Shown here: positions 1 to 52,928 of the stretch, in pieces
Layout: each line of letters opens with the position of its first letter
How positions within the stretch are numbered: the first letter of the stretch is position 1
Assembly: GCF_002976435.1 (NCBI RefSeq)
Contig: NZ_PUGF01000005.1
Span: 186,001-250,000 of the forward strand
Origin: Solimicrobium silvestre
GTDB lineage: Bacteria > Pseudomonadota > Gammaproteobacteria > Burkholderiales > Burkholderiaceae_D
Reading direction: 5' to 3'
Length of the DNA: 64,000 nt
Notes under the pieces: model-generated
The model's database searches: none
Told to the model about the DNA's origin: nothing
What the model saw: only the letters and a program-made list of their open reading frames with translations
Position numbers and translations under genes: made by a program

Positions 1-1
1 C

Positions 2-30688: not shown

Positions 30689-30955
30689 GTGAATTCAGAT
30701 GTTGTACTTCAGTTGTCCTCTCAATTGTTATGGAATGCAATATTAATATCGGCTCCCATACTTGGTTTAACCTTATTAGTTGGCTTAACGGTGAGCATCT
30801 TACAAGTCGTCACCCAGGTACAGGATATGTCCCTGACCTTTATTCCCAAGGTGTTATCAGCAGTTGTTGCCCTGACCGTATTTGGTCCTTGGATGTTGCA
30901 TAAATTACTCAGTTACGCAACAAACCTCATCTCAAATATTCCTAGTTACTTTTAA
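30689..30955 (+). CDS. fliQ: Flagellar export gate protein FliQ
   Basis: The GTG at 30689, 7 bases after an AGGGG site, gives 88 residues, close to the usual 89; the longer frame upstream is not expected for FliQ. The product has two hydrophobic helices with the family segment LLVGLTVSILQVVTQVQDMSLTFIPK. FliQ forms the inner-membrane export gate together with FliP and FliR. Here fliP is not next to it but at 49072, near the other end of the operon. fliR follows after 5 bp. Confidence 0.93.
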   Translation: MNSDVVLQLSSQLLWNAILISAPILGLTLLVGLTVSILQVVTQVQDMSLTFIPKVLSAVVALTVFGPWMLHKLLSYATNLISNIPSYF

Positions 30956-30960
30956 GCCCC

Positions 30961-31728
30961 ATGCCGCTCGAAATTGACGTCGGTATGGCGTGGATTACCT
31001 CTGTATTGCTTTGCTCATTACGTTTGAGCGCAATGCTAATGATGACGCCGATTCTGGACGGCTTCGGTATTCCTGCGCGGATTCGTATCTTCCTCGTTAT
31101 TGCACTGTCTGCCGCGCTGGTTTCGGCCTTGCCCCACAATTCAGCCGCAGAAACATTTGCAGCAGGACCATTCTTCGCTTCGGCTGCTAGCGAATTATTT
31201 ACCGGTGCCTTGCTCGGTTTCGGTGCCATGTGCGCTTTCGCTGCTTTTTCTTTTGCAGGCAATTTACTTGATCAGCAATTGGGATTCGGGCTGGCGAACG
31301 TATTTGATCCGATGACCCGCGCTCAATCTCCTTTAATTGCCTCGCTATTCGGCTTGATGGCCGTAGTGATGTTTTTTACCGTTGACGCACATCATGCGTT
31401 GCTGCGCGGCTTCGCCTATTCGCTAGAAAAAGTCCCACTCGGGAGCGCTATGCACATTGTTTCACCTGGGCTGCTGGTACATCAATTCGGCCTCATTTTT
31501 AGTTTTGGTTTATTGCTGGCAGCACCGGTATTGTTCTGTGTTTACCTAATTGAAATCGGCATGGCGGTGATTTCACGCAACCTGCCGCAGATGAATATTT
31601 TCATGATCAGCATTCCCGTTAAGATCATTTGTGGCTTGATTCTGCTGTCGATCCTGATGACGCGTCTAGCACCGCTATTTAATAAAATTTTCGGCTCTAT
31701 CTTCTCGTTTTGGGAGGGAGTCCTGTAA
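30961..31728 (+). CDS. fliR: Flagellar export gate protein FliR
   Basis: The 255-residue product has multiple hydrophobic segments and the FliR hallmarks FDPMTRAQSPLIASLFGLM and APVLFCVYLIEIGMAVISRNLPQMNIF. The length matches the family (about 260). It completes the FliPQR core of the export gate. The stop overlaps the ATG of flhB by one base (TAATG), showing translational coupling. Confidence 0.95.
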   Translation: MPLEIDVGMAWITSVLLCSLRLSAMLMMTPILDGFGIPARIRIFLVIALSAALVSALPHNSAAETFAAGPFFASAASELFTGALLGFGAMCAFAAFSFAGNLLDQQLGFGLANVFDPMTRAQSPLIASLFGLMAVVMFFTVDAHHALLRGFAYSLEKVPLGSAMHIVSPGLLVHQFGLIFSFGLLLAAPVLFCVYLIEIGMAVISRNLPQMNIFMISIPVKIICGLILLSILMTRLAPLFNKIFGSIFSFWEGVL

Positions 31729-32813
31729 TGTCAGAGCAAGAACAAGATCGTAGCGAAGCAGCGACGCCCTACAAACTAAAGGAAGCGCAACATCGCGGAC
31801 AGGTATCCAAAAGTCAGGAAGCAACCTTTGCCGCCATATTGGCCGCTTTCGTTATGGTGCTTTATTCGGTCGGCCCGTCTATCGCCAGGCAAGAATTACG
31901 ATTGACGCAGCAAGTGTTTGATCATGCAGCACGTATGGACTGGTCCGCGGACACCACCGGCGCATGGTTGTTTGGCGTGTTGTCGACGGCGCTGCTGTAT
32001 TTAATGCCGCTTTTTTTGGCAATTATTTGCGCTGCCATCTTGGCGAATATGGCGCAAGTCGGTGCTATTTTCAGCTTCAAACCGGTCACCCCAGATTTTG
32101 ACCGGATCAATCCGGCCAACGGGCTTAAGCGCATTTTTTCAATTACGCTAGTCTATAACGCGGGCAAAAGCTTATTCAAATTGTTTGCGCTGACCTGGGT
32201 ACTTTGGATCGTTCTTGAGCACGCCTTTCCGCGACTATTTACCTTAGGCCAAATTAACGTGCGTGCGCACGGCAGTTTGGTGATGGGAGAATTACCTCCC
32301 ATGTTATTCAAATTGTTGCTGATTATTTTGATACTGGCTTTACTGGATGTGGGTTACACCCGCTGGGACTACAGTAAAAAAATGCGTATGAGTCGCCGCG
32401 AAGTACGCGACGAAGGCAAACAGCGCGAAGGCGATCCGCGTATCCGCGCGCGTCTGCGTCAAATTCGTGCTGAGCTGCTTAAACAAAGCCGCGCCTTGCG
32501 TAGCTTGCCGGACGCCGACGTGTTGATCACCAATCCGACCCATATTGCGATTGCTCTTTCCTATAAACATGGAGAAATGCCAGCACCGAAAATGCTGGCA
32601 AAAGGGGCTGGTGGCTTGGCGAAAAAAATGCGTGAGATTGCGCGTTTGCATAATATTCCAGTAGTGGAAAATCGCCCTTTGGCGCGAGCGATGTATAAAC
32701 GAGTGAAGTCAGGTGAATACTTGCCTGAAGACTTATATCCAATGACAGCCAAGATCCTTCTGTGGGTCTACTCTTTAAGAAAAGCACGAGCACGTATGGA
32801 AAGTAGTCAATGA
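31728..32813 (+). CDS. flhB: Flagellar export switch protein FlhB
   Basis: The ATG at 31728 follows a GGGAGGGAG site and gives 361 residues starting MSEQEQDRSEAATPYKLKEA, a typical FlhB opening. Four hydrophobic helices are followed by the cytoplasmic domain with the self-cleavage motif NPTH at residues 269-272, the same position as in Salmonella FlhB. Autocleavage between Asn and Pro switches export specificity from rod/hook to late substrates, so this machine seems competent for the switch. The ATGA overlap couples it to flhA. Confidence 0.96.
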   Translation: MSEQEQDRSEAATPYKLKEAQHRGQVSKSQEATFAAILAAFVMVLYSVGPSIARQELRLTQQVFDHAARMDWSADTTGAWLFGVLSTALLYLMPLFLAIICAAILANMAQVGAIFSFKPVTPDFDRINPANGLKRIFSITLVYNAGKSLFKLFALTWVLWIVLEHAFPRLFTLGQINVRAHGSLVMGELPPMLFKLLLIILILALLDVGYTRWDYSKKMRMSRREVRDEGKQREGDPRIRARLRQIRAELLKQSRALRSLPDADVLITNPTHIAIALSYKHGEMPAPKMLAKGAGGLAKKMREIARLHNIPVVENRPLARAMYKRVKSGEYLPEDLYPMTAKILLWVYSLRKARARMESSQ

Positions 32814-34849
32814 ACGCGTTAAGGAAAATTCTTGGCGCCAATACCGACATCTTTATGGTGTTGCTGATTGTCGGTGTGCTGCTGGTGCTGTTTACGCCTA
32901 TACCACCGGCGCTGCTTGATCTGCTGATTCTGGCTAATTTCAGTTTTGCTTTGCTGATTTTGCTGCTGACTTTTTACATGGCCAAGCCAGTCGAATTCTC
33001 GACTTTTCCATCCATGCTATTGATCGCAACGCTGTTTCGTTTGTCGCTCAACGTCGCCGCCACCCGCCTGATTTTGCGTGATGCCGACGCCGGGCACGTT
33101 ATCGGCGCGATCGGCTCCTACGTTGTCGGCGGTAATTACGTCATCGGTTTGATCGTGTTCTTTATCTTGATCGTTGTGCAGTATGTGGTCGTCACCAGCG
33201 GTGCGCAGCGTGTTTCTGAAGTTGCTGCACGCTTCACGCTGGACAGCATGCCCGGTCAGCAGATGAGTATTGATGCTGACTTGAATATGGGTTTTATCGA
33301 TCAACAAGAAGCGCAGCGTCGTCGTAAAAACATTAGCAAAGAAGCGGCATTTTATGGCGCGATGGATGGCGCGAGTAAATTTGTTAAAGGCGATGCGATC
33401 GCCGGGATCATCATCATGATGATTAACATCATCGGCGGCCTGATCATCGGCGTAATGCAATTGGGCATGGGCTGGACCCAGGCATTGCAAAGCTACACCT
33501 TGCTGACGATCGGTGACGGTATCGTCACCCAAGTACCTGCACTGATTATTTCGGTTGGAACCGGGTTGATTGTTACCCGCTCGGCGTCGGATGATAATTT
33601 GAGCCTGGCCGCTTTCCGTCAGATGACGTCGCATCCAAGAACGATCCTACTGGTTGCGCTGGCTTTATTTGGCTTGACCGCGTTGCCGGGAATTCCCGCT
33701 ATACCGGCCATGGTGTTGGTGGGCGCTTATTTACTCGTTTTTGTGCTTAAGCGTGGAGCTAAAGCAGCAAAGGAAAATATTGAACAGGAAAGCACCGACG
33801 CAGATGTGGTTGAGCAAGACACTTATTCAATGCTGAACATTGAGCCGATTGAAGTGACATTTGGAACCAATCTGGTTCCCTTGCTGGAAGGCGATGAGGC
33901 CTTGTTCATGGAACGTATTGCCTCCTTCCGCAAACAATATGCGCTTGAATCCGGTTTGATTTTACCGAGCATTCGCTTCCGTAATGGGGCAAAACTTGGG
34001 CCCAATGAGTATGAAATCATGATCTTCGGTGTCAATGTCGCCCGTGGTGAATTACTACTTGATCATACCCTTGCCATTCACAGCGGAGGCGACCAGAAGA
34101 AGTTGCGTGGGACCGAAACCAAGGAACCTACTTATGGATTACCGGCAGTCTGGATTGACGCCGCTGAACGCGAAGTGGCACGCGCAGCCAAGTTTACATT
34201 AGTTGATCCGCCGACTGTTTTTATGACACATCTCAGTGAAGTGTTACGTCGACAATCCGCCAACTTACTTACCCGTAAAGAATTAGAGCGTTTGCTAGGT
34301 CGGGTGCGTACGCAGCAGCCAGGTCTTGTGGAAGAAATTATTCCCACGTCCCTGTCGATTAGCGACGTACAACGGGTACTGCAAAATTTGCTGAAAGAAA
34401 AAGTGTCGATCCGCAATCTGGACGCGATCGTAGAAACCCTGGCTGACCGGGTCAGAACAAGTAAAGATCCGATGCAACTGACCGAGATGGTACGTCAGCG
34501 CCTGGCTTCTGTTATTTGCCAGTCGTTGGTCGGCAACAATGCCTATCTTCAAGTGATGACGCTAGACCCCATCATTGAACAACGCTTGTTACAAGGTATA
34601 CGCGATATTGAATCCGGTGGTGCATTTGCTATCGAGCCAAAATTTGCAGAACAATTCGTGGCACGACTAGCGCAACAGGCCGACAAAATGATGAAGAGCA
34701 ATGCCATACCCGTGTTGATCTGCGCACCGGATTTGCGGCGTCATATAAGAACCTTGTCCGAGCGCATGGCTCCGCATTTACGTGTGCTTTCGCTGGCGGA
34801 GATACCGACTAATATTGAACTTCGCGCATTTGGCGCTGTAACGCTGTAA
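32810..34849 (+). CDS. flhA: Flagellar export gate protein FlhA
   Basis: The 679-residue product has the usual FlhA length. The N-terminal half is membrane-embedded with the FHIPEP-family core SLNVAATRLILRDADAGHV and the conserved loop RRKNISKEAAFYGAMDGASK. The C-terminal half is the cytoplasmic ring domain that docks export chaperones and substrates. It uses the proton gradient to drive export. It shares a four-base overlap with flhB. flgF follows after 40 bp with its own AAGGAG site. Confidence 0.97.
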   Translation: MNALRKILGANTDIFMVLLIVGVLLVLFTPIPPALLDLLILANFSFALLILLLTFYMAKPVEFSTFPSMLLIATLFRLSLNVAATRLILRDADAGHVIGAIGSYVVGGNYVIGLIVFFILIVVQYVVVTSGAQRVSEVAARFTLDSMPGQQMSIDADLNMGFIDQQEAQRRRKNISKEAAFYGAMDGASKFVKGDAIAGIIIMMINIIGGLIIGVMQLGMGWTQALQSYTLLTIGDGIVTQVPALIISVGTGLIVTRSASDDNLSLAAFRQMTSHPRTILLVALALFGLTALPGIPAIPAMVLVGAYLLVFVLKRGAKAAKENIEQESTDADVVEQDTYSMLNIEPIEVTFGTNLVPLLEGDEALFMERIASFRKQYALESGLILPSIRFRNGAKLGPNEYEIMIFGVNVARGELLLDHTLAIHSGGDQKKLRGTETKEPTYGLPAVWIDAAEREVARAAKFTLVDPPTVFMTHLSEVLRRQSANLLTRKELERLLGRVRTQQPGLVEEIIPTSLSISDVQRVLQNLLKEKVSIRNLDAIVETLADRVRTSKDPMQLTEMVRQRLASVICQSLVGNNAYLQVMTLDPIIEQRLLQGIRDIESGGAFAIEPKFAEQFVARLAQQADKMMKSNAIPVLICAPDLRRHIRTLSERMAPHLRVLSLAEIPTNIELRAFGAVTL

Positions 34850-34889
34850 CTCGCGGTGCAACACAACAACATCACAAGGAGACAATGAC

Positions 34890-35627
34890 ATGGCAGATGC
34901 ATTTTCCATCGCAATACAAAGCATGCAAAACGACATGCAACGTATGGACATTATTAGTGAAAACGTCGCTAACAGCGCTACGCCGGGTTATCGTCGCGCG
35001 CTGAGTACCAACCAATCTTTCGGTGACGTATTGCAAAGCAGCTCTCTCTCCAATGTTACGCATAGTATTGAAATCACATTACCAACGGTAACCAGCGTAC
35101 TTGACACTGCTTCCGGCTCGATCAAATCGACTAGCCAGCCACTTGATCTGGCTATTAGCGGCGATGGCTATTTTGAATTAACCACCCCTGATGGCCTTGC
35201 CTACACTCGCGCAGGCAATTTTCATATTAATGAAGACGGTCACTTGGTTAGCCAGGACGGCTACCCCGTTAGCGGTAAAGGTGGCGATATCATCGTTAAT
35301 GGAAAAAGTACACCAACTATTACTCCTAGCGGCGAAGTCAGCGATGGCAGTACGGCGGTTGGGCAAATCCGGATTGTAAGTTTCGCTGACAAGCATGGCT
35401 TGCAAACGCGCAGCGGCGGATTACTGGTATCAACCAACAACGATGCAGAAACGTCCGATTCGTCAGCCCAGCTTCAGATCGGATTTTTAGAAAATGCCAA
35501 TGTCATACCGTTGAATGAAATGGTCAGTATGCTTGAAACATCACGTCATTTTGAATCACAACAAAAGCTGTTTCAGGGATACGACGAACAAATCTCTTCC
35601 GCCATACAAAAATTGGGGCAATTCTGA
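34890..35627 (+). CDS. flgF: Flagellar proximal rod protein FlgF
   Basis: The 245-residue product begins MADAFSIAIQSMQNDMQRMD and has the axial-family N-terminal motif ISENVANSATPGYRRAL and the C-terminal D0 helix with MVSMLETSRHFESQQKLF. The middle motif SQPLDLAISGDGYFELTTPDG is typical for FlgF/FlgG. It builds the proximal rod through the periplasm. It precedes flgG, as in many proteobacteria. Confidence 0.93.
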   Translation: MADAFSIAIQSMQNDMQRMDIISENVANSATPGYRRALSTNQSFGDVLQSSSLSNVTHSIEITLPTVTSVLDTASGSIKSTSQPLDLAISGDGYFELTTPDGLAYTRAGNFHINEDGHLVSQDGYPVSGKGGDIIVNGKSTPTITPSGEVSDGSTAVGQIRIVSFADKHGLQTRSGGLLVSTNNDAETSDSSAQLQIGFLENANVIPLNEMVSMLETSRHFESQQKLFQGYDEQISSAIQKLGQF

Positions 35628-35661
35628 TGTTTAACATTTATTCGTTTAGGAAAACTGTCGC

Positions 35662-36534
35662 GTGAATAACTCTCTTTATATCGCAGCCACTGGCATGCAG
35701 GCTCAACAATTGAACCTGGATACGATTGCTAATAACCTGACTAACCTCAGTACCAATGGATTTAAATCGAGCGTCGTTAATTTTCAGGAATTGATGTATG
35801 TCGACCCGGTTGGCGCTCGTTCGGCACAAACAGAGATGCACTCTGTGCATTCCGGTATGCATGGCGTACATGGCGACCATAGTGCTCATGGCATCCAAAG
35901 TACTCAGGGACAGGACAGCGACGCAGCGACGTCCGCCATTACTCCCTATGGTACTGGCGTATCGGTCGGCAGCGTTACGAAGGACTTTAGCCTCGGCACG
36001 ATGACGCAAACTAATTCTCAAATGGACTTGGCAATTCAAGGTAATGGCTTCCTGGAAGTCACTATGCCGGACGGTAGCCATGCGTATACCCGCGGCGGTA
36101 CGTTAAGCGTCGGCGCTGACAATTTTTTGATGAGCCCGCAAGGTTATGAACTCAAGCCGTCCATTCGTTTGCCAGCCAATCCGACCAGCATCACTATTGC
36201 GCAAAATGGACAAGTATCCGTGACAACGGGAACGTCGGCGCAGCCTACGCAAGTTGGGCAGATCGAGTTAGCTAATTTCAATAACCCAGGCGCACTCAAT
36301 CCACAGGGAAACGGTATCTATGTGCCGACCGCCGCCTCTGGTAATCCAACCTATAGCGTCCCCGGCAGCACCAATGCCGGAACACTGGCGCAAGGCTCAC
36401 TAGAAGGCTCGAACGTGAATATGGTGAACCAGATGGTCAACTTAATGGTAGCGCAACGCGCGTATGAATTGAGCTCCAAAGTTGTTCAAACTGCCGATGA
36501 ACTCATGTCGTTGACCAATAACCTGCGCCGTTGA
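35662..36534 (+). CDS. flgG: Flagellar distal rod protein FlgG with a His-rich insert
   Basis: The start GTG at 35662 gives MNNSLYIAATGMQAQQLNLD, the standard FlgG opening. The D0/D1 motifs IANNLTNLSTNGFKSS and, at the C-terminus, NVNMVNQMVNLMVAQRAYEL are intact. At 290 residues it is about 30 longer than usual FlgG. The extra length is a His-rich insert at roughly residues 55-85 (with HSVHSGMHGVHGDHSAHG) in the region where FlgG normally has the segment that straightens and stabilises the rod. The distal rod passes through the P and L rings. The TGATG overlap couples it to flgA. Confidence 0.94.
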   Translation: MNNSLYIAATGMQAQQLNLDTIANNLTNLSTNGFKSSVVNFQELMYVDPVGARSAQTEMHSVHSGMHGVHGDHSAHGIQSTQGQDSDAATSAITPYGTGVSVGSVTKDFSLGTMTQTNSQMDLAIQGNGFLEVTMPDGSHAYTRGGTLSVGADNFLMSPQGYELKPSIRLPANPTSITIAQNGQVSVTTGTSAQPTQVGQIELANFNNPGALNPQGNGIYVPTAASGNPTYSVPGSTNAGTLAQGSLEGSNVNMVNQMVNLMVAQRAYELSSKVVQTADELMSLTNNLRR

Positions 36535-37502
36535 TGAAAACCGTTTGCACCTTCTTGACTTTGCTGTTGATCAGCGTCTCCGTTTGCTGCCATGCGCAGC
36601 AAACTGGCGCAGTACATGCTGTTTTGCAAGCCGAGGTGTTGGTTGATGGGCGTGTTATCACGCTGGGAGATGTTGCGCGACTAAGTGGTGCAAGCCCAGC
36701 AGCACTAGATACGCTGCGCGGAGTACAACTGGCCACAGCGCCGCAACCAGGTTATTCCTCGCACTTGACACAGCGCGAAGTGTTGCGTCTGCTGCATGAA
36801 GCGGGAATACAAGAACTGGTAGTAGAAGGTGCGGATGCGACGACGGTGATGACGGTAGCAATCCCGTTTGATCCGGAGCCTCTGGTCGCCGTTGCAAAGA
36901 CAAGTCTGGCTGGTAGTCTTCGTCGCGACGGACTGTCGTTAGAGTTAACTCATAGCGAGACGTTGCCAGTTATCCGCTTACCACGTGGCGAGGTAACGCT
37001 TCGCCCTCGGCAGGCTTCCGTTGACCGACCACGTAGCCATATGGTGGCGTGGGTAGATATTCTGCTTGACGGCAGTTTTTACCGTTCGGTGCCGGTCTCG
37101 TTTTCGGTTAGCGCACTCCAGCAAGTGCTAGTTACCCGGAGTAGCTTGAACAAAGGTCAGGTACTGAGCTGTGACAATGTCGAGCTTGAACAGCGTGATA
37201 TTGCGCAACTCGCCGCCAACCCTCAAGTCGGTGACTGTAGTAATTTAAAACGTAGATTGCGCCGCAACCTGTCGACTGGAGAGGTTCTTTTGTCGGGTGA
37301 GCTTGAAGCCATTCCAGCAGTAAGTGAAGGCGACATCGTTACTCTTGAAGTCACTAAAGGTGCCGTTGTGTTGGAGTCGCACGCACTGGCGCTGACAGAT
37401 GGTCAAGTGGGTCAGCGTATTTCGGTTCGTGCCACATTGAGCCAGGAACCGGTGCTTGCCATGGTGATTGCACCAGGCATCGTCAACGTATCAGAAAGAT
37501 GA
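36534..37502 (+). CDS. flgA: P-ring assembly chaperone FlgA
   Basis: The ATG at 36534 overlaps the flgG stop and opens a signal peptide (MKTVCTFLTLLLISVSVCCHA). The mature protein of about 300 residues has the SAF-like motif SLNKGQVLSCDNVELEQRDI and ends in the C-terminal FlgA domain with LSTGEVLLSGELEAIPAVSEGDIV. FlgA assists FlgI polymerisation in the periplasm. It is longer than enteric FlgA (about 220), a length seen in other proteobacteria. The next gene starts 4 bp later. Confidence 0.9.
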   Translation: MKTVCTFLTLLLISVSVCCHAQQTGAVHAVLQAEVLVDGRVITLGDVARLSGASPAALDTLRGVQLATAPQPGYSSHLTQREVLRLLHEAGIQELVVEGADATTVMTVAIPFDPEPLVAVAKTSLAGSLRRDGLSLELTHSETLPVIRLPRGEVTLRPRQASVDRPRSHMVAWVDILLDGSFYRSVPVSFSVSALQQVLVTRSSLNKGQVLSCDNVELEQRDIAQLAANPQVGDCSNLKRRLRRNLSTGEVLLSGELEAIPAVSEGDIVTLEVTKGAVVLESHALALTDGQVGQRISVRATLSQEPVLAMVIAPGIVNVSER

Positions 37503-37506
37503 GAAT

Positions 37507-38079
37507 ATGAAAAAATCCATGCTCTGCGCGACAGCGCTAATCGTCAGTTTTGCAAGCCAAATACAAGCTGAGGATTTATACAAAGAACAAACCTATCGCC
37601 CGCTTGCAGCGGATAAGCGCGCTCATTTGCCCGGCGATTCAGTTACCGTCATGATTTACGAAAATTCCAGCGCCTCAAGCAGCGCCAATACCAATGTAAC
37701 TCGAAGCAGTAATCTTGGCGTACAAGCGGCAGCGACCCAGGTCAATCATCAAGCTTCATTAGGTACTAGTTCAAACTTTGATGGCGGCGGCACAGTGCAG
37801 CGCAGCGATAATCTATTAGCTCAAATTACTGTCACAGTAGAAAAAATTGCGCCCAATGGTGATCTTTGGGTAAGCGGTGAGCAAGTCGTTGAAATCAACT
37901 CCGACAAGCAGCATATAAAAGTGGAAGGCCGCATCAGAACACTCGACATTTCTGACACAAATACTGTGCCATCCAATCGGATCGCCGAAGCGAAAATTAG
38001 CTACTTGGGCGATGGTGACCTTGCATCACATCAAAAACCAGGATTGATTACCAGTTTCTTTGCTTGGATAGGATTATGA
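37507..38079 (+). CDS. flgH: L-ring protein FlgH lacking the lipobox cysteine
   Basis: The ATG at 37507 follows a GAAAGATGAG site and gives 190 residues. FlgH motifs are present: PGDSVTVMIYENSSASSSA, GTVQRSDNLLAQITVTV, PNGDLWVSGEQVVEIN and the end region RIAEAKISYLGDG. The leader MKKSMLCATALIVSFASQIQAED looks like a signal-peptidase-I leader. There is no LxxC lipobox: the only Cys is at position 7, inside the hydrophobic core. Most FlgH proteins are outer-membrane lipoproteins, so this one would be anchored otherwise. It overlaps flgI. Confidence 0.93.
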   Translation: MKKSMLCATALIVSFASQIQAEDLYKEQTYRPLAADKRAHLPGDSVTVMIYENSSASSSANTNVTRSSNLGVQAAATQVNHQASLGTSSNFDGGGTVQRSDNLLAQITVTVEKIAPNGDLWVSGEQVVEINSDKQHIKVEGRIRTLDISDTNTVPSNRIAEAKISYLGDGDLASHQKPGLITSFFAWIGL

Positions 38080-39209: not shown

Positions 39210-39222
39210 TAAGGAGCATTTT

Positions 39223-45850: not shown

Positions 45851-45854
45851 TTAC

Positions 45855-46268
45855 ATGGCACTTGATCCCGTTACTAATAGCACCGGCAATGCCAATTTAC
45901 AGGCTGCCGGCATCTCGCAGCAAGATTTTTTGAAGATTTTGCTCACGCAGTTGACTGAACAAGATCCGCTCAAGCCGATGGACAATACACAGTTTGTCGC
46001 CCAGCTGGCGCAATTTTCTCAACTTGAGCAAACGCAACAGCTAGCCGATACGGCGACGACCTCGTTAGCGACGCAAACGGCATCGCAGGCAATTGCTTTG
46101 TTAGGAAAAACCGTCACCGTTTCATCTACATCAAGCTCCGGATCGAGCACCAGCGGATCAGTGACATCGATCAGTTTCAGTGGCAATGCGCCGACGCTCA
46201 CTGTAACGCCCACCTCAGGCCAAGCATTGACTGGCGTCGCCTTGAGTCAAATCACGGCAACGCATTAA
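45855..46268 (+). CDS. flgD: Hook cap protein FlgD (short form)
   Basis: The ATG at 45855 has a CAGGAG site upstream; the longer frame from 45693 overlaps fliK. The 137-residue product contains the FlgD signature ISQQDFLKILLTQLTEQDPL, KPMDNTQFVAQLAQFSQLEQ and ALLGKTVTV. It ends soon after, so the tudor/FnIII-like C-terminal domain of longer FlgD (about 230) is mostly missing. It caps the growing hook and allows FlgE polymerisation. Confidence 0.92.
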   Translation: MALDPVTNSTGNANLQAAGISQQDFLKILLTQLTEQDPLKPMDNTQFVAQLAQFSQLEQTQQLADTATTSLATQTASQAIALLGKTVTVSSTSSSGSSTSGSVTSISFSGNAPTLTVTPTSGQALTGVALSQITATH

Positions 46269-46286
46269 TCGCAAAAGGAAAACATC

Positions 46287-47480
46287 ATGTCATTATCATC
46301 GTCCATTGATATCGGTATGAGCGGCCTGTTGGGCTTCTCTCAAGAATTACAAACAATTAGTAACAATGTTGCCAACCTTAACACCCCCGGTTTTAAAGGA
46401 TCCGACTCGCAATTTTCTGATTTATTTTCTCAGGATAATAGTTTTTCTGGAGGTTCCGGCGATTCTACTGGCGGTGGTATGCAAGTATTACCTGCCGTGA
46501 TTAATTTCTCTCAGGGGCAAACTACGCAAACGGGTGTAGCAACCAATATGGTCGACAGCGGGAATAGTTTTTTTGTTCTTAAAGATCCAAAAACTGGACA
46601 AATTTCCTACACGCAGGACGGCCAATTTCAATTCAACTCAAGTGGCGTATTAGTCGATAGCACTGGTAATTTTGATGTTCAAGCGCTCGATAGCAGTGGT
46701 AAGTTGGCCAACCTGACTCAGAGCGGTTTGCAAAACAGTCTGCCAAAAGCTTCGTCGACAATTACCTTGGCTGGCAATTTGTCGACGACAACATCACCCG
46801 ATGTAGTAAGTTCGATTAACGTGACCGACGCGGCGGGTGGAACACACACGTTGACGGCGACATTTACCAATAGCACCAAGACTCCTGGTACTTGGACAGT
46901 AAGTTTGGCGGATGCCAATGGTACTGTTTCAAGCGGCGGTTCATTCGTATTTACTAATGGCACGCTCACCACAACTGGCGGTGCGAATTCGTATGCATTC
47001 ACCTATTCGCCAGCCGGTGTTCCAGCGATGAATTTAACGTTAACACTCGACCCATCCAGTACCTATTTAGCGTCATCATCAACATTAGGTGTTGAATCAG
47101 TGGATGGTTATGCAGCCGGAACGGTGACCAACGCCACGTTCAATCAAAGTGGTACGCTGGTGTTGTCTTACTCGAACGGGCAAACAGTCAACGGTCCTAA
47201 TGTTGCGCTGGCTAATTTTTCGTCGACAGCTAATTTACAGCATGCCGGCAACAACGCTTTTATCACATCCAATAACGGCGATGCGCAACTTGGCATTGCA
47301 GGTAATACGAGTGCCTGGGGCACCATTAATTCTGGCTCAATCCAAGCTTCTAACGTTGATCTGTCGACTGAATTTAGTAACATCATCATCACGCAACGCG
47401 GTTACCAAGCAGCATCTGAAATCGTGAGTACCGCAAATCAAATGATGCAAAACGTGCTTGATATGAAAGGACAGGGTTAA
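46287..47480 (+). CDS. flgE: Flagellar hook protein FlgE
   Basis: The 397-residue product opens with the axial motif SSIDIGMSGLLGFSQELQTI and ISNNVANLNTPGFKGSDSQF. It ends with SNVDLSTEFSNIIITQRGYQ and AASEIVSTANQMMQNVL, the D0 pair of hook proteins. The middle Ser/Thr-rich domains give the hook length typical of FlgE (about 400). An AAAAGGAAAAC ribosome site precedes the ATG. No hook-associated proteins (FlgK, FlgL) follow. Confidence 0.95.
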   Translation: MSLSSSIDIGMSGLLGFSQELQTISNNVANLNTPGFKGSDSQFSDLFSQDNSFSGGSGDSTGGGMQVLPAVINFSQGQTTQTGVATNMVDSGNSFFVLKDPKTGQISYTQDGQFQFNSSGVLVDSTGNFDVQALDSSGKLANLTQSGLQNSLPKASSTITLAGNLSTTTSPDVVSSINVTDAAGGTHTLTATFTNSTKTPGTWTVSLADANGTVSSGGSFVFTNGTLTTTGGANSYAFTYSPAGVPAMNLTLTLDPSSTYLASSSTLGVESVDGYAAGTVTNATFNQSGTLVLSYSNGQTVNGPNVALANFSSTANLQHAGNNAFITSNNGDAQLGIAGNTSAWGTINSGSIQASNVDLSTEFSNIIITQRGYQAASEIVSTANQMMQNVLDMKGQG

Positions 47481-47482
47481 GT

Positions 47483-48271
47483 TTGGCAACTCATACTTTT
47501 GCGCTGCTTAAGCAACGCGACATCAATTCTTGCATTGAACGCGCCTGCGATGCGGTGAGCGAATGGGAGAGCGCTTGGTGCCCTTCTTCCGGAATCGAGA
47601 TTGATTGCAGTGAAACCTGCGACCCATCAGTCATACAACCGGGTGGTCTATGGACTGCACATCGGCTTACACAAGGCTCTCTTGTCTGGTGTTACTGCCC
47701 GACCGAATTTGGTAAGCAGGCAGAACGTTTGATTTTCGATTTGAACGATGCATTGCGCAGCACCGACCGGCATCGTGAATCCGCACTTGCCGAAAACGTT
47801 GCCAATGAAGCCGTTGATGAACTGGTCGCGCTACTGCTCAATCGCTTAGCAGGGCCAACAACCGCACAACTTGAATTCGGTACAAAGCCTGCTGATTGGC
47901 AATTCCGTCGCCACAGCGGCACTGCATTAATCAAGATCACAATAGGCGGGAAGACGCTCTCATTACTCATCCCCTCTGAGCGACTTCCTTCGCACGAAAT
48001 TGCTCGCAAGTCGCCGCCGCGCGAGGCAGTCACACCGCTGCCCGTTGCATTGAATAAAATCGAAGTTCGCTTGATTGCCGAGCTTGGTGACGTAGAAATG
48101 TCGCTGGGCCATTTTGCTTCGCTGCAGCTTGGTGATGTCATCAATTTGTCCATCGGCATTGATCAATCCCTGACGGTTTTTACTGAAAACCGTTGCCCGG
48201 TGGGCGTTGCTCATCTGGGTAAACAGGATGGCAATCGTGCCCTCGAAATGTTTAAGATTCCGCATAATTAA
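47483..48271 (+). CDS. fliM: FliM-like switch/C-ring protein without the CheY-binding N-terminus
   Basis: The likely start is TTG at 47483, with an AGGACAGG site 6-7 bases upstream. The 262-residue product is about 70 residues shorter than FliM. Its C-terminal SpoA domain is clear (NKIEVRLIAELGDVEMSLGH, LQLGDVINLSIGIDQSLTVF, CPVGVAHLGKQDGNRALEM). The N-terminus reads MATHTFALLKQRDINSCIER and lacks the LSQ-EIDALL motif that binds phospho-CheY. It could be a C-ring protein closer to injectisome SctQ. The neighbour fliN provides the second SpoA unit. Confidence 0.75.
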   Translation: MATHTFALLKQRDINSCIERACDAVSEWESAWCPSSGIEIDCSETCDPSVIQPGGLWTAHRLTQGSLVWCYCPTEFGKQAERLIFDLNDALRSTDRHRESALAENVANEAVDELVALLLNRLAGPTTAQLEFGTKPADWQFRRHSGTALIKITIGGKTLSLLIPSERLPSHEIARKSPPREAVTPLPVALNKIEVRLIAELGDVEMSLGHFASLQLGDVINLSIGIDQSLTVFTENRCPVGVAHLGKQDGNRALEMFKIPHN

Positions 48272-48282
48272 TAGAGTACCTA

Positions 48283-48621
48283 ATGAAAAATTCCGAAACC
48301 GAAATAATCCAACTAAATCCGCAGATGATTGAACTAAGCGAAATTGCGCCACACCACGGTAAAGGGCCAGCGATCATATCAGACAGTTTAGATGCCATCG
48401 AGCACGTCAAAGTGCGGCTAGTTGTACAAGTTGGTGAAGCCAGTATTACTGTGGGTGAATTGCATGCGATGAAGGAAGAACATGTGATCAAACTGGAAAG
48501 TTTAGCTGATGCGCCCGTTGACATTCTGTTAGAAGGTCGTGTTGTCGCGCGAGGGCAACTTGTCGCCGTGGATGATAATTTCGGTGTGCGCATCACTGAA
48601 TTACCGAAAGCACGTTTGTGA
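48283..48621 (+). CDS. fliN: C-ring protein FliN
   Basis: The 112-residue product has a variable N-terminal tail and a SpoA domain: VKVRLVVQVGEASITVGELH, HVIKLESLADAPVDILLEGR and VVARGQLVAVDDNFGVRITE. The length is usual for FliN (about 110-140). FliN rings bind FliH and thus the export ATPase complex. The stop overlaps the GTG start of fliO. Confidence 0.93.
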   Translation: MKNSETEIIQLNPQMIELSEIAPHHGKGPAIISDSLDAIEHVKVRLVVQVGEASITVGELHAMKEEHVIKLESLADAPVDILLEGRVVARGQLVAVDDNFGVRITELPKARL

Positions 48622-49079
48622 CGATCGTAATGAACAGCTTGAAACGGCGCAGCATTGCCGTGGCCGGACTAGTAGCTGTAATCGGCATGCAGGTTTCGTC
48701 AGCTTATGCGAATGCCGTAACGCTACCTGCGAACATTCCATTCAAATCGACTACCGTCGCTGACGATAATCTGGTCTATCGTGCGATTGCGGCCTTTCTT
48801 ATCGCGGGTGCAGTTGCATTCGGGCTAGCTTGGTGTATCAAGAATTTCATGCCGTCGTTCAATAAAAAGATGAAGCGTGATAAGCAACTGGAGCGCCTGG
48901 AAAGCATGCGCTTAAGCACCCGCTCTATGCTGGTACGGGTGCGCTGGGGTGATGAGGAATTATTGGTCGGAGAAAGCGAGCATGGTGTGACTCTGATTGG
49001 TAAGCGCCCAATGGAATCTATCATCGCAGCAGAAGCCACATTACCGGAAACAACAAAAGTAAAGGGAAGCCATGAGTAA
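48618..49079 (+). CDS. fliO: Flagellar export gate assembly protein FliO
   Basis: The GTG at 48618 (four-base overlap with fliN) or ATG at 48630 opens a product of about 150 residues. It has a signal-like leader ending near SSAYANA, one transmembrane helix (AIAAFLIAGAVAFGLAWCIK) and a basic cytoplasmic domain with LSTRSMLVRVRWGDEELLVG and EHGVTLIGKRP. This matches FliO, which stabilises FliP during gate assembly. fliP follows with overlap. Confidence 0.82.
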   Translation: MTIVMNSLKRRSIAVAGLVAVIGMQVSSAYANAVTLPANIPFKSTTVADDNLVYRAIAAFLIAGAVAFGLAWCIKNFMPSFNKKMKRDKQLERLESMRLSTRSMLVRVRWGDEELLVGESEHGVTLIGKRPMESIIAAEATLPETTKVKGSHE

Positions 49080-49848
49080 GCGTACGATATTGGCGATTGC
49101 AGTCGGTTTTTTACTTGCCATGCTCGGTATGCAATTGCACCCTTGCTTTGCCGCACCCAACACGTTTGCCGCCCTGCCAGGCATTGATGTGCATGTAATT
49201 TCACATGGAGCAAAGAACGAAGAAGTATCGTCAGCATTGAAGATTTTGCTGGGGATGACCATCCTCACTTTAGCGCCGGCTATTCTTGTTTCAATGACGT
49301 CGTTCATCCGTATTACCATCGTGCTGTCGATGTTGCGCCATGCATTCGGCATGCAAGAAACGCCGCCCAATACGGTATTGGTCAGTCTTGCGCTATTCCT
49401 TACCCTGTTCACCATGATGCCGGTTATCAACCAAGTAAACGACCAGGCATTCGAGCCATTCATGAATGGAAAAATTGAGGCTGGCCCGGCGTTTCAGCTC
49501 GGCTTGAAACCTGTGCGTGAATTCATGATTCGGCAAACGCGGGAGCAGGATTTATCGCTGATGGTGGAACTAGCTAAACAGCCTGAACCGAAAACGATGG
49601 ACGACATTCCGACCGTCGAGTTGATTCCAGCCTATATGCTGTCCGAACTACGCTCAGCTTTTCAAATAGGATTTGTGATCTTCCTGCCCTTCCTGCTGAT
49701 TGACTTATTAACGTCGACGATTTTAATGTCCTTAGGGATGATGATGGTGCCACCTGTAACGATTTCGCTACCGGTGAAGGTATTAATGTTCGTGCTGATT
49801 GATGGCTGGAATCTCGTAGTAAAAGCATTGGTCGGAACCTTCCAATAG
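49072..49848 (+). CDS. fliP: Flagellar export gate protein FliP
   Basis: The 258-residue product has a signal peptide ending near HPCFAAP and the FliP hallmarks ILLGMTILTLAPAILVSMTS, FIRITIVLSMLRHAFGMQET, IPAYMLSELRSAFQIGFVIF and MMVPPVTISLPVKVLMFVLI. It forms the pentamer of the export gate with FliQ and FliR. These are encoded about 18 kb upstream at the other end of the same operon, an unusual split of fliP from fliQR. Confidence 0.96.
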   Translation: MSKRTILAIAVGFLLAMLGMQLHPCFAAPNTFAALPGIDVHVISHGAKNEEVSSALKILLGMTILTLAPAILVSMTSFIRITIVLSMLRHAFGMQETPPNTVLVSLALFLTLFTMMPVINQVNDQAFEPFMNGKIEAGPAFQLGLKPVREFMIRQTREQDLSLMVELAKQPEPKTMDDIPTVELIPAYMLSELRSAFQIGFVIFLPFLLIDLLTSTILMSLGMMMVPPVTISLPVKVLMFVLIDGWNLVVKALVGTFQ

Positions 49849-49854
49849 ACACCT

Positions 49855-50610
49855 GTGACCAACCTTTCAACCTTTACGCCAGATAAATACGTGCATACCA
49901 GTGAGGTTGCTGCGCTATGGCATGACTGGCATGAAAATAAAGGCCGGGAGGTGCGCGATCGGATTATCGAGCATTACCTGCCCTTTACCAGAATGATGGC
50001 CGCCAAGCTTTATAGTAAGCGGCATAGCGAAGAGTTCGAGTTTGATGATTACCTGCAGTTCGCTACGATTGGGCTGATGGAGTCCATTGATCGCTACGAA
50101 TCCAACTCCTTGGCGCAGTTCACCACCTATGCCGCTAAGCGCATCAATGGCGCAGTACTGGATGGGGTCGAACAATTGAGTGAACGGCAACAACAAATAA
50201 GTACCCACCAGCGACGCCTAAAGGAGCGAAGCAAGTTGGCCGGCGATGCTCTTAAAACCGGCACTGGCACTCTGTTCGACCAACTTGCCGAGATCGCTGT
50301 CGGTCTCGCGCTGGGCCATCTTCTTGACGATACCAGGCTCTATTTTGACGACGAAACGATAGAGCCTTACAATCAATATCGCGGCGTCGAATTGCGGCAG
50401 TTACAAAACCGATTGCAGATACTGGTGGAACAACTGCCAGAACGAGAGCGTTTGCTGATCAAATACACGTATTTTAATCACATGACATTTGATGCCGTGG
50501 CACAGCAATGGGGTTTAACTCGAAGTAGAATTGCCCAGCTTCACCGTAGTGCGCTAGACCGTTTACGCAAATCGGCTCTTGATCTAAAACAATATGATAT
50601 TACTTGCTAG
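49855..50610 (+). CDS. fliA: Flagellar sigma-28 factor FliA
   Basis: The GTG at 49855 starts a 251-residue sigma factor. Region 2 is visible in HYLPFTRMMAAKLYSKRHSE, DYLQFATIGLMESIDRYESN and AQFTTYAAKRINGAVLDGVE. Region 4 is visible in VEQLPERERLLIKYTYFNHM and the helix-turn-helix AVAQQWGLTRSRIAQLHRSA. FliA normally drives filament and motor genes. Its presence suggests that a sigma-28 regulon exists elsewhere. No flgM anti-sigma gene is next to it. Confidence 0.93.
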   Translation: MTNLSTFTPDKYVHTSEVAALWHDWHENKGREVRDRIIEHYLPFTRMMAAKLYSKRHSEEFEFDDYLQFATIGLMESIDRYESNSLAQFTTYAAKRINGAVLDGVEQLSERQQQISTHQRRLKERSKLAGDALKTGTGTLFDQLAEIAVGLALGHLLDDTRLYFDDETIEPYNQYRGVELRQLQNRLQILVEQLPERERLLIKYTYFNHMTFDAVAQQWGLTRSRIAQLHRSALDRLRKSALDLKQYDITC

Positions 50611-50652
50611 ATATTCTAAACAACGGCGTCGTTTTTCGACTGAAATAGCGTT

Positions 50653-51261
50653 ATGACCAAACCAACAAATTCTAAGAAATCGATAGCGGCGGTAGATACC
50701 GAGGTTGGCGCATTATTTGAGCAAGCCCTCGCTGCCAGTCTGCAACATCAATCCGAAATCGCCGTCAATATTCTGAACGAACTATTACACCGTGACCCTT
50801 ACCATGCGCGTGCGCGGCACTTGTTAGGTGCCGAATATGCGCAAGCAGGCAACATTGATAATGCCTTGCTTGAATTATTCACTGCGCTGGAGTTGAATCC
50901 GGCTATGCCGTTGGCGCGTTTCCAACTCGGCCTTTTGCTGTTGACCTGTGCCCGTGTGGATGATGCGGTGAACGTTTGGATGCCACTTGATCAACTCGGA
51001 AACGAACACGTTCTCAATCGTTTCCGGGTAGGTATGCTGCAGATGGTTCAAGGAAATTTTGAGCACGCCCGTCAACTACTTGCTACAGCGATGGCTGAAA
51101 ACACCGAGCTGCCCGAGCTGAACAAAGAAATGGCCATTGTCATTGAAACTATCTTTGCTGCGGCCAATCGTGACTCACCATTGGTAGATGCAGCCGAAGA
51201 AGATCCGAATGCTCAGCACATTCTGGTTTCTTCTTATTTGCAATCGCCCGTCTTTCACTAA
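50653..51261 (+). CDS. TPR-repeat protein of the flagellar operon
   Basis: The 202-residue product has tandem helical TPR-like units: EIAVNILNELLHRDPYHARA, RHLLGAEYAQAGNIDNALLE, FTALELNPAMPLARFQLGLL and LLTCARVDDAVNVWMPLDQL. It has no signal peptide. TPR proteins of similar size serve as export chaperones for translocators in type III secretion. The place downstream of the export genes fits such a role, but this is inferred. The next gene starts 18 bp later. Confidence 0.75.
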   Translation: MTKPTNSKKSIAAVDTEVGALFEQALAASLQHQSEIAVNILNELLHRDPYHARARHLLGAEYAQAGNIDNALLELFTALELNPAMPLARFQLGLLLLTCARVDDAVNVWMPLDQLGNEHVLNRFRVGMLQMVQGNFEHARQLLATAMAENTELPELNKEMAIVIETIFAAANRDSPLVDAAEEDPNAQHILVSSYLQSPVFH

Positions 51262-51279
51262 CGCTGATATAGAAGAGTT

Positions 51280-51705
51280 ATGGCCATTTCCCCTCTCAGT
51301 GTCCAACAGATCGTTGCTGTCATTCGCCAGCAGATGACTGATCCAATTCGCACAATGAGCACCTCAGTACCAATGAGTGCTCCAGGTGTCGTGCGTAAAG
51401 GTGCAGGAACCCGTTCCCAGACAACAAAAGTGAAACAAGGCGGACTGAGTAAAATGATTGGGCATCGGGTCAACGCACTTCAGGTGACAGACCCGGAACG
51501 CGGACGCAAGGCCTTTCGTATTTTTTTGGAATCGGTACTCATTAATGAATTAGGCGAAGATTTAATCAACGACCCTAGCTTTTATCAGATGGTGGACGAT
51601 ATCCAGGTGCAGATGGAAAGTAATCCCGATATCGCAAAAGCCATGCGAGAAGCCACAGACCAATTATTGAGCGGTGTAGACCCTCTCAAGAATGCCCCAA
51701 AATAG
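51280..51705 (+). CDS. Small conserved protein of the flagellar operon, FlgJ-like or type III accessory
   Basis: The 141-residue product starts MAISPLSVQQIVAVIRQQMT and has a basic central part. Its C-terminal helical domain has RKAFRIFLESVLINELGEDL, INDPSFYQMVDDIQVQMESN and IAKAMREATDQLLSG. The pattern F-x-x-(V/L)-L-x-x-E-L-(G) faintly resembles the rod-cap domain of FlgJ, and no other FlgJ candidate is in the operon. There is no muramidase domain. An AGAAGAG site precedes the ATG. The family is uncertain. Confidence 0.6.
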   Translation: MAISPLSVQQIVAVIRQQMTDPIRTMSTSVPMSAPGVVRKGAGTRSQTTKVKQGGLSKMIGHRVNALQVTDPERGRKAFRIFLESVLINELGEDLINDPSFYQMVDDIQVQMESNPDIAKAMREATDQLLSGVDPLKNAPK

Positions 51706-51761
51706 GCTGGACCAGTTCAACGCCATTGACCAGCAAGCCCCATATAAAAGTAGACAAATTC

Positions 51762-52928
51762 ATGAATTCAACACCAAACACAGCCAACCCAAGCTCGGCG
51801 TTAACGCGCATGCTCGGTTATCTTGAGCAAGACCCACAAAACGAACCGCTAACTTTTGATACCATCGATCTCTGTCTGGCAGAAAACAATCTCGACCTTA
51901 CAGACCGCTTGCTCCTAAATGCCGCTAAAAATTGGCCGGAGGCGCTGGGTGTATTGAATCGCAAGGCAATAGTTGCACTACGCCGCAATACCCCTCACGT
52001 AGCCATCATCGAGTTGGAAAAGATTATGGCTAGCGGCAAGGCAGACGCTGCAATTCGCTACAACCTTGCCTATGCCAACTACCTGATCGGCAACTATGCC
52101 CGCACGTGTGAAGTGATTAAGCCAGCGCTTGATGATGCGGATCGGATCCCAGGTTTGGATTCAATTTATGTACTTAGTTTGCATCAGAGAGGTGAAATTG
52201 ATACTGCCATTGCCTACGCGGAAAAGCGTCTCAAAACAAAGCCGACCGATACCGAATTACAAGGCGTACTTGCTCTGCTGTACCTCGATGCGGAGAAAGA
52301 TATTGACACTTGTCGTCAGTACACTTACGCCGCGTTGCGCTCCAATCCGAATCACCCGATGGCGCTAGTCACTGCTAGTGCGTTGTCGATGATGGATGAA
52401 AAACCCGCTGCCGCAGTGGAATTCGCCCAGAAAATTATCAGCCGCAATCCGAGCGATGGTCGTGCATGGTCATCGATTGGCGTCGCCCAGATGTATTTGC
52501 TTGACTTACCGGCTGCACAAACAGCCTTGAAAAATGCCGTACAACATATGTCTAATCATATAGGCACCTGGCATGGGCTAGCCTGGACGCAGCTATTGCA
52601 AAACGACATTGATGGCGCTGAAGCTAGCTATAACCAAGCTATTGAACTTGACCGTACTTTCGGTGAATCGCAAGCTGGCCTCGCCATTATTGCGCAATTG
52701 CGTGGCGATAAAATCAAGGCCAAAAGGTTAATGGATCGCGCCAAACGCCTTGCTCCATCTGCCATGACATTGCATTACCTGAAGTTGTTACAGTTGGAGG
52801 AAAGTGGCGATCATTCAACGGCCCAGAGCTACTTGCAAGATGTTCTTAAACGAACTCCGTCATTTATGGGGGATTCAGTTTTAGATATGGTTCGGCGCAT
52901 GGGGCGGAGCAATATTAAAACTGATTAA
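51762..52928 (+). CDS. Large TPR-repeat protein at the end of the flagellar operon
   Basis: ATG 51762 (388 residues) is preferred over a TTG at 51726. The product is built of about nine TPR-like helical pairs, for example LNRKAIVALRRNTPHVAIIE, ALVTASALSMMDEKPAAAVE, AWSSIGVAQMYLLDLPAAQT and GLAWTQLLQNDIDGAEASYN. It has no signal peptide or membrane segment. It may be a scaffold or chaperone for the export system. It is the last gene before a 540-bp gap and a strong hairpin, so it probably ends the operon. Confidence 0.75.
   Translation: MNSTPNTANPSSALTRMLGYLEQDPQNEPLTFDTIDLCLAENNLDLTDRLLLNAAKNWPEALGVLNRKAIVALRRNTPHVAIIELEKIMASGKADAAIRYNLAYANYLIGNYARTCEVIKPALDDADRIPGLDSIYVLSLHQRGEIDTAIAYAEKRLKTKPTDTELQGVLALLYLDAEKDIDTCRQYTYAALRSNPNHPMALVTASALSMMDEKPAAAVEFAQKIISRNPSDGRAWSSIGVAQMYLLDLPAAQTALKNAVQHMSNHIGTWHGLAWTQLLQNDIDGAEASYNQAIELDRTFGESQAGLAIIAQLRGDKIKAKRLMDRAKRLAPSAMTLHYLKLLQLEESGDHSTAQSYLQDVLKRTPSFMGDSVLDMVRRMGRSNIKTD

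What the first reader, a model, noticed from the sequence alone, without database searches (positions are those of the whole stretch)
30689..52928. Flagellar operon with a reduced motor/switch: possible secondary or non-rotating flagellum-derived secretion apparatus
One uninterrupted operon encodes export gate, ATPase complex, MS ring, rod, P/L rings and hook. No flagellin, filament cap, FlgK/FlgL, stator, chemotaxis or FliL gene is in it. The protein at the FliG position has only 182 residues and seems to lack the C-terminal torque domain; the FliM-like protein lacks the EIDALL CheY-binding motif. Torque generation and switching by known mechanisms would therefore be impaired. FliA and an intact FlhB NPTH site argue that specificity switching is still used, so a filament or other late substrate may be encoded elsewhere.
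Basis: partly seen in the sequence, partly recalled or inferred. Interest (0 to 1): 0.75.

Follow-up and report, generated by a model that had tools for sequence, protein, structure and literature searches.

The report
Motorless flagellar secretion machine, giant toxins
A bacterium carries a second flagellum-like gene set that lacks a filament, a stator and the rotor's torque part, and that in many other bacteria travels with genes for giant toxin-like proteins, so it probably exports those proteins instead of driving swimming.

Summary
Window 30689-52928 is one gene set for a flagellar export gate, ATPase, rod, rings and hook, without flagellin, junction proteins, cap or stator. The 182-residue protein is a FliG reduced to its N and middle domains. 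The genome also holds a canonical flagellar set and an injectisome-like set.

It is a recurring system: its FlhA forms one clade (37 rows), found in 4 of 398 phylum genomes, own included. Six of 50 bearing genomes show no FliG_C and no flagellin, so it is kept without motility.

The likely cargo is next door. Both giant ORFs beside the operon (15,885 and over 3,500 residues) share an N-terminal YD/Rhs domain. Of 50 genomes taken from a scan with that domain, 44 encode the system's FlhA. Twelve giants have C-terminal ends without detectable kinship; of ten scanned, three carry muramidase, nuclease or ADP-ribosyltransferase domains. Export is inferred, not shown. Half of 80 giant loci have no system gene nearby.

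The parts
1..23920 (+). C-terminal half of a 15,885-aa giant ORF that begins at contig position C5:162263, outside the window: YD/Rhs-type N-terminus, cadherin/Ig-like repeats in the part inside the window
30644..30955 (+). fliQ (matched residues start near 30692)
   Evidence: TIGR01402 88.3 bits, just under the cut-off
30961..31728 (+). fliR
31710..32813 (+). flhB, with NPTH autocleavage site
32810..34849 (+). flhA, member of the system's FlhA clade
34890..35627 (+). flgF rod protein
35662..36534 (+). flgG rod protein
36531..37502 (+). flgA P-ring chaperone
37468..38079 (+). flgH L ring
38064..39209 (+). flgI P ring
39187..39606 (+). flgB rod protein
39606..40040 (+). flgC rod protein
40037..40348 (+). 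fliE
40361..41839 (+). fliF MS ring
41836..42384 (+). short FliG: N and middle domains only, no torque (C) domain
   Evidence: weak
42375..43097 (+). fliH
42944..44452 (+). fliI ATPase (true start probably near 43100)
44442..44909 (+). fliJ-position coiled coil
   Evidence: weak similarity only
44873..45850 (+). fliK-position protein, no family match
45693..46268 (+). flgD hook cap (true start probably later)
46287..47480 (+). flgE hook
47483..48271 (+). FliM/SctQ-like protein, only the C-terminal SpoA domain recognisable
48283..48621 (+). fliN
48618..49079 (+). fliO
49072..49848 (+). fliP
49855..50610 (+). fliA-type sigma factor
50653..51261 (+). TPR protein 1, conserved with the system
51280..51705 (+). 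small system-associated protein of unknown family (X51280)
51726..52928 (+). TPR protein 2, conserved with the system
53472..64000 (+). giant YD/Rhs ORF with the shared N-terminal domain; runs off the contig end at C5:250128

Best explanation
The operon builds a flagellar-type type III secretion machine that ends at the hook: export gate, ATPase, MS ring, a reduced cytoplasmic ring (FliG without its torque domain, a reduced FliM, FliN), rod, P/L rings and hook. With no torque domain, stator or filament it does not rotate as a swimming motor. Its most likely job is to export giant YD/Rhs polymorphic toxins, and in some cases adhesin-like giants, that share a conserved N-terminal domain. I infer that this domain is the export signal, that FlhB and a FliK-type protein switch the gate from hook to giant substrates, and that the two TPR proteins and the small conserved protein act as chaperones or gatekeepers. 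Shown: gene content, FliG truncation, a separate FlhA clade, presence in six genomes where no FliG_C and no flagellin was found, co-occurrence and frequent physical linkage with the giants, unrelated and partly toxin-like C-termini. Inferred: non-rotation, export of the giants, the signal role of the N-terminal domain, the target cells.
Against: No secretion experiment. Of 80 loci found by the giant domain, 40 show no system gene within a flank of at most 10 kb and 14 only TPR or X51280 genes. Six of 50 giant-bearing genomes lack a full system FlhA: G748, G751, G768 (a fragment only), G769, G783, G789. G709 has the system but only a doubtful giant match (6.4e-4). The giant-bearing genomes are rich in Burkholderiales-type bacteria, so the phylum-wide 4 of 398 understates the fair baseline: all four lie in one order of which at least 24 genomes were listed. 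No clear sigma-28 enrichment upstream of 76 giants. One system FlhB (G265) has NPAR instead of NPTH. The window's 15,885-aa ORF is largely cadherin/Ig repeats, an architecture often exported by type I systems (recalled). In OH11 the flagellar-type genes are said not to form an operon (PMC7277350). The FliM-like protein is too diverged to tell FliM from SctQ.
Confidence: 0.66

Rival explanations
1. A filament-less flagellar-type secretion machine whose main cargo is not the giants but other, unlinked proteins; the giants sit in the same weapon island and leave by another route such as type I secretion.
For: 40 of 80 giant loci have no system gene nearby; six of 50 giant-bearing genomes lack a full system FlhA; cadherin-like repeats in the window giant; no clear sigma-28 signature upstream of the giants.
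Against: 44 of 50 giant-bearing genomes have the system FlhA; a giant lies beside five of the six system loci found through FliG and beside the operon of G671, found through its giant; five genomes without FliG_C and flagellin that were found through the giants have the system, and one found through the system (G265) has the giant domain beside it.
Confidence: 0.19
2. A second motile flagellum that borrows filament, stator and torque parts from the primary flagellum of the same cell.
For: 44 of 50 system genomes also have a canonical FliG_C; a FliA-type sigma factor and FlhB NPTH are kept in the window.
Against: Six system genomes show no FliG_C and no flagellin; the operon's own FliG lacks the torque domain; comparing (and 27, 39, 51), no FliG_C lies within 180 kb of the system on the same contig, though many assemblies are fragmented.
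Confidence: 0.05
3. A decaying relic of a flagellum without function.
For: Missing filament, stator and torque parts; a relic could lose these.
Against: The core genes stay in the same order in seven loci from six families and in genomes without flagellin; no listed system FlhA has an inner stop.
Confidence: 0.05
4. A structure mainly serving adhesion or cell-cell contact: the giants stay attached to the hook tip as surface fibres rather than being released as toxins.
For: Large cadherin-like repeat region in the window giant; hook genes are kept.
Against: C-terminal enzyme-type domains in 3 of 10 giants scanned.
Confidence: 0.12

Closest known systems
Flagellar-type III secretion genes of non-flagellated Lysobacter enzymogenes OH11 (PMC7277350, PMC9927559; abstract and passages)
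   Same: Flagellar export genes kept without filament, stator, FliG or FliM (by BLAST in PMC9927559); export of a heterologous flagellin needs flhB and fliI. Two other Lysobacter genomes here (G758, G761) carry the window's system.
   Different: The passages seen do not describe a short FliG, a FliM-like gene or giant YD/Rhs cargo, report a role in twitching, and say the genes form no operon. OH11 itself was not examined here. The follow-up PMC7688988 is not held.
Canonical bacterial flagellum
   Same: Export gate, ATPase, MS ring, rod, P/L rings, hook, hook cap, FliA, FliN; FlhA 40% identical to the genome's canonical copy.
   Different: No filament, junction, filament cap or stator gene; FliG lacks the torque domain; FliM reduced; separate FlhA group.
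Non-flagellar type III secretion system (injectisome)
   Same: Type III export core; a reduced cytoplasmic ring with a SctQ/FliM-type SpoA protein.
   Different: Has rod, P/L rings, hook and FliE/FlgB/FlgC, which belong to flagella; FlhA groups with flagellar-type rows; the adaptor resembles FliG N+M.
Rhs/YD polymorphic toxin systems (review PMC3482391, passages only)
   Same: Conserved N-terminus, YD repeats, unrelated C-terminal ends with toxin-type domains.
   Different: N-terminal domain linked to a flagellar-type machine rather than to PAAR/type VI, two-partner or type VII routes (these recalled); one ORF of 15,885 aa.
Buchnera flagellar basal bodies (PMC8109811, search listing only)
   Same: Basal bodies and export genes kept in a symbiont with a reduced flagellar gene set.
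   Different: Reduced symbiont genome; no short-FliG operon or giant cargo known to me (recalled).

Membership tests
Motile bacterial flagellum | Flagellin filament gene belonging to the system | tested here: not met
   None in the operon (one sub-cut-off Flagellin_C line inside FlgE); flagellin in 0 of 6 FliG_C-less system genomes
Motile bacterial flagellum | FliG with a C-terminal torque domain | tested here: not met
   N and M match, C does not; FliG_C only on C35 in this genome
Motile bacterial flagellum | Linked MotAB stator | tested here: not met
   No stator in the operon; the MotA-type gene near canonical flhA is on C17
Flagellar-type export apparatus with hook-basal body | FlhAB, FliPQR, FliHI, FliF, rod, P/L rings, hook | tested here: met
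Flagellar-type export apparatus with hook-basal body | FlhA on the flagellar side of the FlhA/SctV tree | tested here: met
   grouped with 13 rows that include the own canonical FlhA, apart from nine that include the own injectisome-type copy (100/100); midpoint root, proteobacterial rows only, row types inferred
Non-flagellar T3SS (injectisome) | Lacks rod, hook, FliE, FlgB and FlgC | tested here: not met
   Rod, hook and FliE present
Non-flagellar T3SS (injectisome) | SctK adaptor in place of FliG | tested here: inconclusive
   The protein aligns with FliG N+M; SctK not compared directly
Polymorphic toxin system | Conserved N-terminus with exchangeable, unrelated C-terminal domains | tested here: met
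   C-terminal ends 0 of 66 pairs similar (N-terminal 66 of 66 follows from how they were chosen); toxin-type domains in 3 of 10
Polymorphic toxin system | Immunity genes beside the toxin | not tested
   Neighbouring small ORFs were seen, not analysed
Polymorphic toxin system | Toxicity and protection in experiments | not testable with these tools
   No bench work
Lysobacter enzymogenes OH11 flagellar-type T3SS | Same clade as the OH11 genes | not tested
   OH11 sequence not searched; two other Lysobacter genomes carry the system

The most novel reading that the evidence does not exclude
A distinct protein secretion system: a flagellar hook-basal body that has given up rotation and serves as the dedicated exporter of giant YD/Rhs polymorphic toxins (complete ones seen here have about 3,600 to 15,900 residues), recognised by a shared N-terminal domain, used by many beta-, gamma- and alphaproteobacteria against competitors or hosts, and carried alongside ordinary flagella and injectisomes.
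Probability: 0.58. Interest if true: 0.9.

Novelty: new variant of a known kind. Interest (0 to 1): 0.8.

Why it matters
If true, it is an intermediate between the swimming flagellum and a weapon: a complete hook-basal body kept for secretion alone, with the torque domain of FliG removed. It would add a delivery route to the known routes of polymorphic toxins, give a predicted function to many giant Rhs genes, and make testable how a flagellar gate can export proteins of up to over a million daltons. It also offers a genomic reason why some bacteria without flagellin, such as Lysobacter and Caenimonas strains, keep flagellar genes.

Tried and rejected
SctK idea: I first suspected that the 182-aa protein was an injectisome SctK, from its place between fliF and fliH. 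Profile and structure comparisons favoured FliG N+M; SctK itself was not compared.

The first small profile of four sequences gave no useful solved-structure match. With 18 rows the PDB profile search gave only weak FliG hits, E 0.11-0.68, behind two unrelated proteins at 0.083-0.085; I rely on hhalign and the structural alignment. The AlphaFold model, made from four sequences, is moderate (pLDDT 68, pTM 0.43), helical folds inflate Z, and FliG middle and C domains tie within 1 Z, so the domain call rests on the sequence profiles. That aligner sees only Foldseek's own top chains, so missing folds mean nothing.

The FliM-like protein: only the SpoA end matches, both FliM (75.8%) and SctQ (68.0%); left open. 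A structure job for it was never accepted.

Sigma-28 promoters upstream of 76 giant starts: four patterns (recalled), none clearly enriched; the best was 3 seen against 0.84 expected, shuffles reaching 4. A crude look for Sec signals (median of 0 Lys/Arg in the first ten residues of 75 giants) is weak evidence only.

A number I withdrew on checking: the overlap of 3 giant genomes with 4 system genomes among the 398 would be about 4e-7 if independent, but two of the three (G000, G643) supplied the query profile. Only G671 counts as independent, roughly 2 in 396 by chance. I lowered two odds by 0.02 for this. Likewise, of the six genomes without FliG_C, five (G758, G761, G762, G765, G778) were reached through the giants, so finding giants in them is by construction; only G265 is independent in that direction.

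Rows dropped or not followed: three weak matches (G242, G099, G269) and two (G478, G509); four long ORFs in other frames, left out of the 12 giants; two giants of the 12 not among the ten ends. Two of the 26 linked loci (L100, L106) are genomes already used as references, and G792 is the same genome as L106. In one search I gave 50 loci of the 80; itself kept 80 of 116.

Viral contigs: one scan with FliF found no relative. Literature: ten searches gave no report, in the listings and passages seen, of a flagellar-type operon linked to YD/Rhs giants; most subscription papers are not in that library, and PMC7688988, the most relevant, is not held.
Full report
WHAT IS IN THE WINDOW. The window is C5:186001-250000 of a 5.24 Mb assembly in 67 contigs. 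Searches confirm one run of + strand genes from fliQ (near 30689) to a TPR gene ending at 52928. Pfam names FliR, FlhB, FlhA, FlgF, FlgG, FlgA, FlgH, FlgI, FlgB, FlgC, FliE, FliF, FliH, FliI, FlgD, FlgE, FliN, FliO, FliP and a FliA-type sigma factor, some rod proteins only by their shared rod domains; FliQ falls just under the NCBIfam cut-off. No FlgK, FlgL, FliD, stator, FliL or CheY is hit, and flagellin only as a sub-cut-off Flagellin_C line inside the hook protein (E 0.0013). The gene after fliF encodes 182 residues without a Pfam or NCBIfam hit. The FliM-position protein matches only at its C-terminal SpoA domain, to SctQ (2.5e-9) and FliM (2.2e-7), both far under their cut-offs. FlhB keeps NPTH.

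THE REST OF THE GENOME. FlhA occurs three times: on C17 with other canonical flagellar genes, in this operon, and at C5:129839, inside what looks from its gene order like an injectisome locus, C5:125449-145648 (no family scan was run there). The only FliG_C is on C35, the flagellins are on C21 and C17, and a MotA-type gene sits about 3 kb from the C17 flhA. So the operon is a separate, third type III set. Its nearest large neighbours are giant ORFs: the window's 7,912-aa ORF is the C-terminal half of a 15,885-aa ORF starting at C5:162263, and on the other side an ORF of more than 3,500 aa runs off the contig end.

ONE GROUP, WITHOUT MOTILITY. A tree of 59 FlhA rows puts the 37 system rows in one group (100/100), next to 13 rows that include the own canonical FlhA (95/79) and away from nine that include the own injectisome-type copy (midpoint root, long branches flagged by the program). 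Among 398 genomes of the phylum four have this FlhA at E 1e-175, own included, all in one order. Of 50 system-bearing genomes, 44 also have FliG_C; six do not at E 1e-5: G265, Lysobacter sp. ISL-50 (G758), Lysobacter sp. yr284 (G761), a Ramlibacter MAG (G762), Caenimonas koreensis (G765) and Caenimonas sp. SL110 (G778) (names). Flagellin was found in none of these six and in all ten FliG_C-positive genomes tested. The operon was seen nearly whole in G265, G765, G778 and G761; in G758 the contig ends inside it; G762 was not looked at. G762 is a MAG and G265 lies in about 550 contigs, so absence there is weaker. A system kept where no flagellum is found is not a part of a swimming flagellum, and a relic would hardly keep the same core order across six families.

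THE GIANTS. Both giants of the window genome begin alike (MVAIV-GN-LG), followed by YD/Rhs repeats. A profile of the first 160 residues, made from the window giant and two giants beside the operon of G643, was run over the same 398 genomes: three matched, G000, G643 and G671. The first two supplied the query, so G671 is the independent test. It had not been found by the FliG profile; its giant lies about 140 nt from the first gene of a near-complete operon, with a short-FliG ORF of 200 codons recognised by position. The fourth system genome, G709, has only a doubtful giant match (6.4e-4). Of the six system loci reached through FliG, five have the giant's N-terminus within about 6 kb of the operon (G000, G643, G221, and at contig ends G265 and G301); G709 does not show it.

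A scan of named genomes with a six-sequence profile of the domain gave 116 relatives, 80 kept: Massilia, Duganella, Collimonas, Undibacterium, Burkholderia, Paraburkholderia, Variovorax, Lysobacter, Sphingomonas, Caulobacter, Pseudoalteromonas, Hahella, Legionella and others. Within a flank of at most 10 kb, 26 of 80 loci hold two or more core system genes, 14 hold TPR or X51280 genes with at most one core gene, and 40 none; apart from one TPR line no gene fits the canonical set better. Two of the 26 are reference genomes. I then searched 50 of these genomes, 43 whose locus held fewer than two core genes and seven linked controls, with the window FlhA: 44 of 50 have it at 49-72% identity, 37 of the 43 and 7 of the 7; other full-length FlhAs reach at most 42%, partial ones 47%. 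Of the six without, G768 has a 127-residue fragment at 72%, and G751 and G769 have accessory system genes beside their giant; G748, G783 and G789 are misses as far as seen. The phylum baseline of 4 in 398 is not matched for taxonomy. The order of the window was listed with at least 24 genomes, four positive, so a fairer baseline could be as high as about one in six, still far below 44 of 50. Five relatives without the system lack the domain.

For 12 complete giants the N-terminal 160 residues match in all 66 pairs, as expected from how they were chosen, while no pair matches over the last 100, 120, 150 or 200 residues. Of ten C-terminal ends scanned, one is a muramidase (6e-63), one Scabin-like ADP-ribosyltransferase (3e-22), one Tox-REase-7 nuclease (9e-8), one has a weak lipase/hydrolase match and six have none. 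This is the build of polymorphic toxins. The window's 15,885-aa giant differs: after its YD start it carries cadherin/Ig-like repeats, which may make it an adhesin.

HOW IT PROBABLY WORKS. Rod, rings, hook and hook cap suggest a machine that grows as far as a hook. The FlhB site, NPTH in six of the seven system loci first examined and NPAR in G265, suggests that the gate then switches substrates (inferred). With no flagellin or FlgK/L in the operon, the next substrates would be the giants, threaded unfolded through the channel (inferred). The short FliG would still join FliF to the FliM/FliN-type ring for ATPase docking and cargo sorting, but offers the stator nothing to push (inferred from the domain loss). 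A published case makes export without a flagellum believable: in L. enzymogenes OH11, which has no flagella, export of a test flagellin needs flhB and fliI (PMC7277350, abstract and passages). A comparison of Lysobacter genomes reports flagellin, fliD, flgK, flgL, flgB, fliE, fliG, fliM, motA and motB as missing by BLAST, and cites earlier work for secretion of antifungal toxins through these genes (PMC9927559, passages). That pattern fits this system, whose diverged FliG, FliM, FliE and FlgB could escape such a search, but OH11 itself was not examined here and its genes are said not to form an operon.

WEAK POINTS. No export experiment; half of the giant loci are unlinked; no clear sigma-28 promoter signal upstream of the giants; the FliM-like protein is unresolved; the tree covers proteobacterial FlhAs only; genomes are not independent samples.

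NOVELTY. The machine is a new variant of the flagellar type III apparatus. The link with giant YD/Rhs proteins did not appear in the listings and passages of the ten paper searches made here, in a library without most subscription journals and without the most relevant follow-up paper.

Noticed in passing
C5:162263-209920 (window 1-23920 is its end): A single open reading frame of 15,885 residues, among the longest bacterial ORFs I know of (recalled), with a YD/Rhs start and long cadherin/Ig-like repeats.
   Followed up: partly
window 25931-26728, 27626-28339, 29333-30046 (-): Three ORFs that share a transposase-like stretch (the latter two of equal length, 237 aa) between the giant ORF and the operon, suggesting insertion elements around a small passenger gene; not scanned against families.
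   Followed up: no
C5:125449-145648 (outside the window): What looks like an injectisome locus on the same contig, so the genome seems to carry three different type III sets.
   Followed up: partly
window 51280-51705 and alignment A11: A small protein family found with this system, no Pfam match in the window member, better conserved in its C-terminal part; possible chaperone or gatekeeper.
   Followed up: partly
L057:9372-10556 and 10559-10837; L044:17911-19254: In G709 and G265 a FliK with a Flg_hook domain lies between flhA and flgF, with a small gene after it in G709 that resembles the FlhB C-terminus by eye; the window has no such FliK there.
   Followed up: no
alignment A8, C-terminal ends: Many short FliG proteins end in a basic, possibly helical tail, which might bind membrane or partner proteins.
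   Followed up: no
G750, G765, G771 and others: Some genomes carry several matches to the giants' N-terminal domain (8 in Caenimonas koreensis, some of them weak), on several contigs, like scattered effectors.
   Followed up: partly
C17 FlhB of the window genome (L024:17177-18379): The canonical flagellar FlhB reads NPNH, not NPTH, at the autocleavage site.
   Followed up: no
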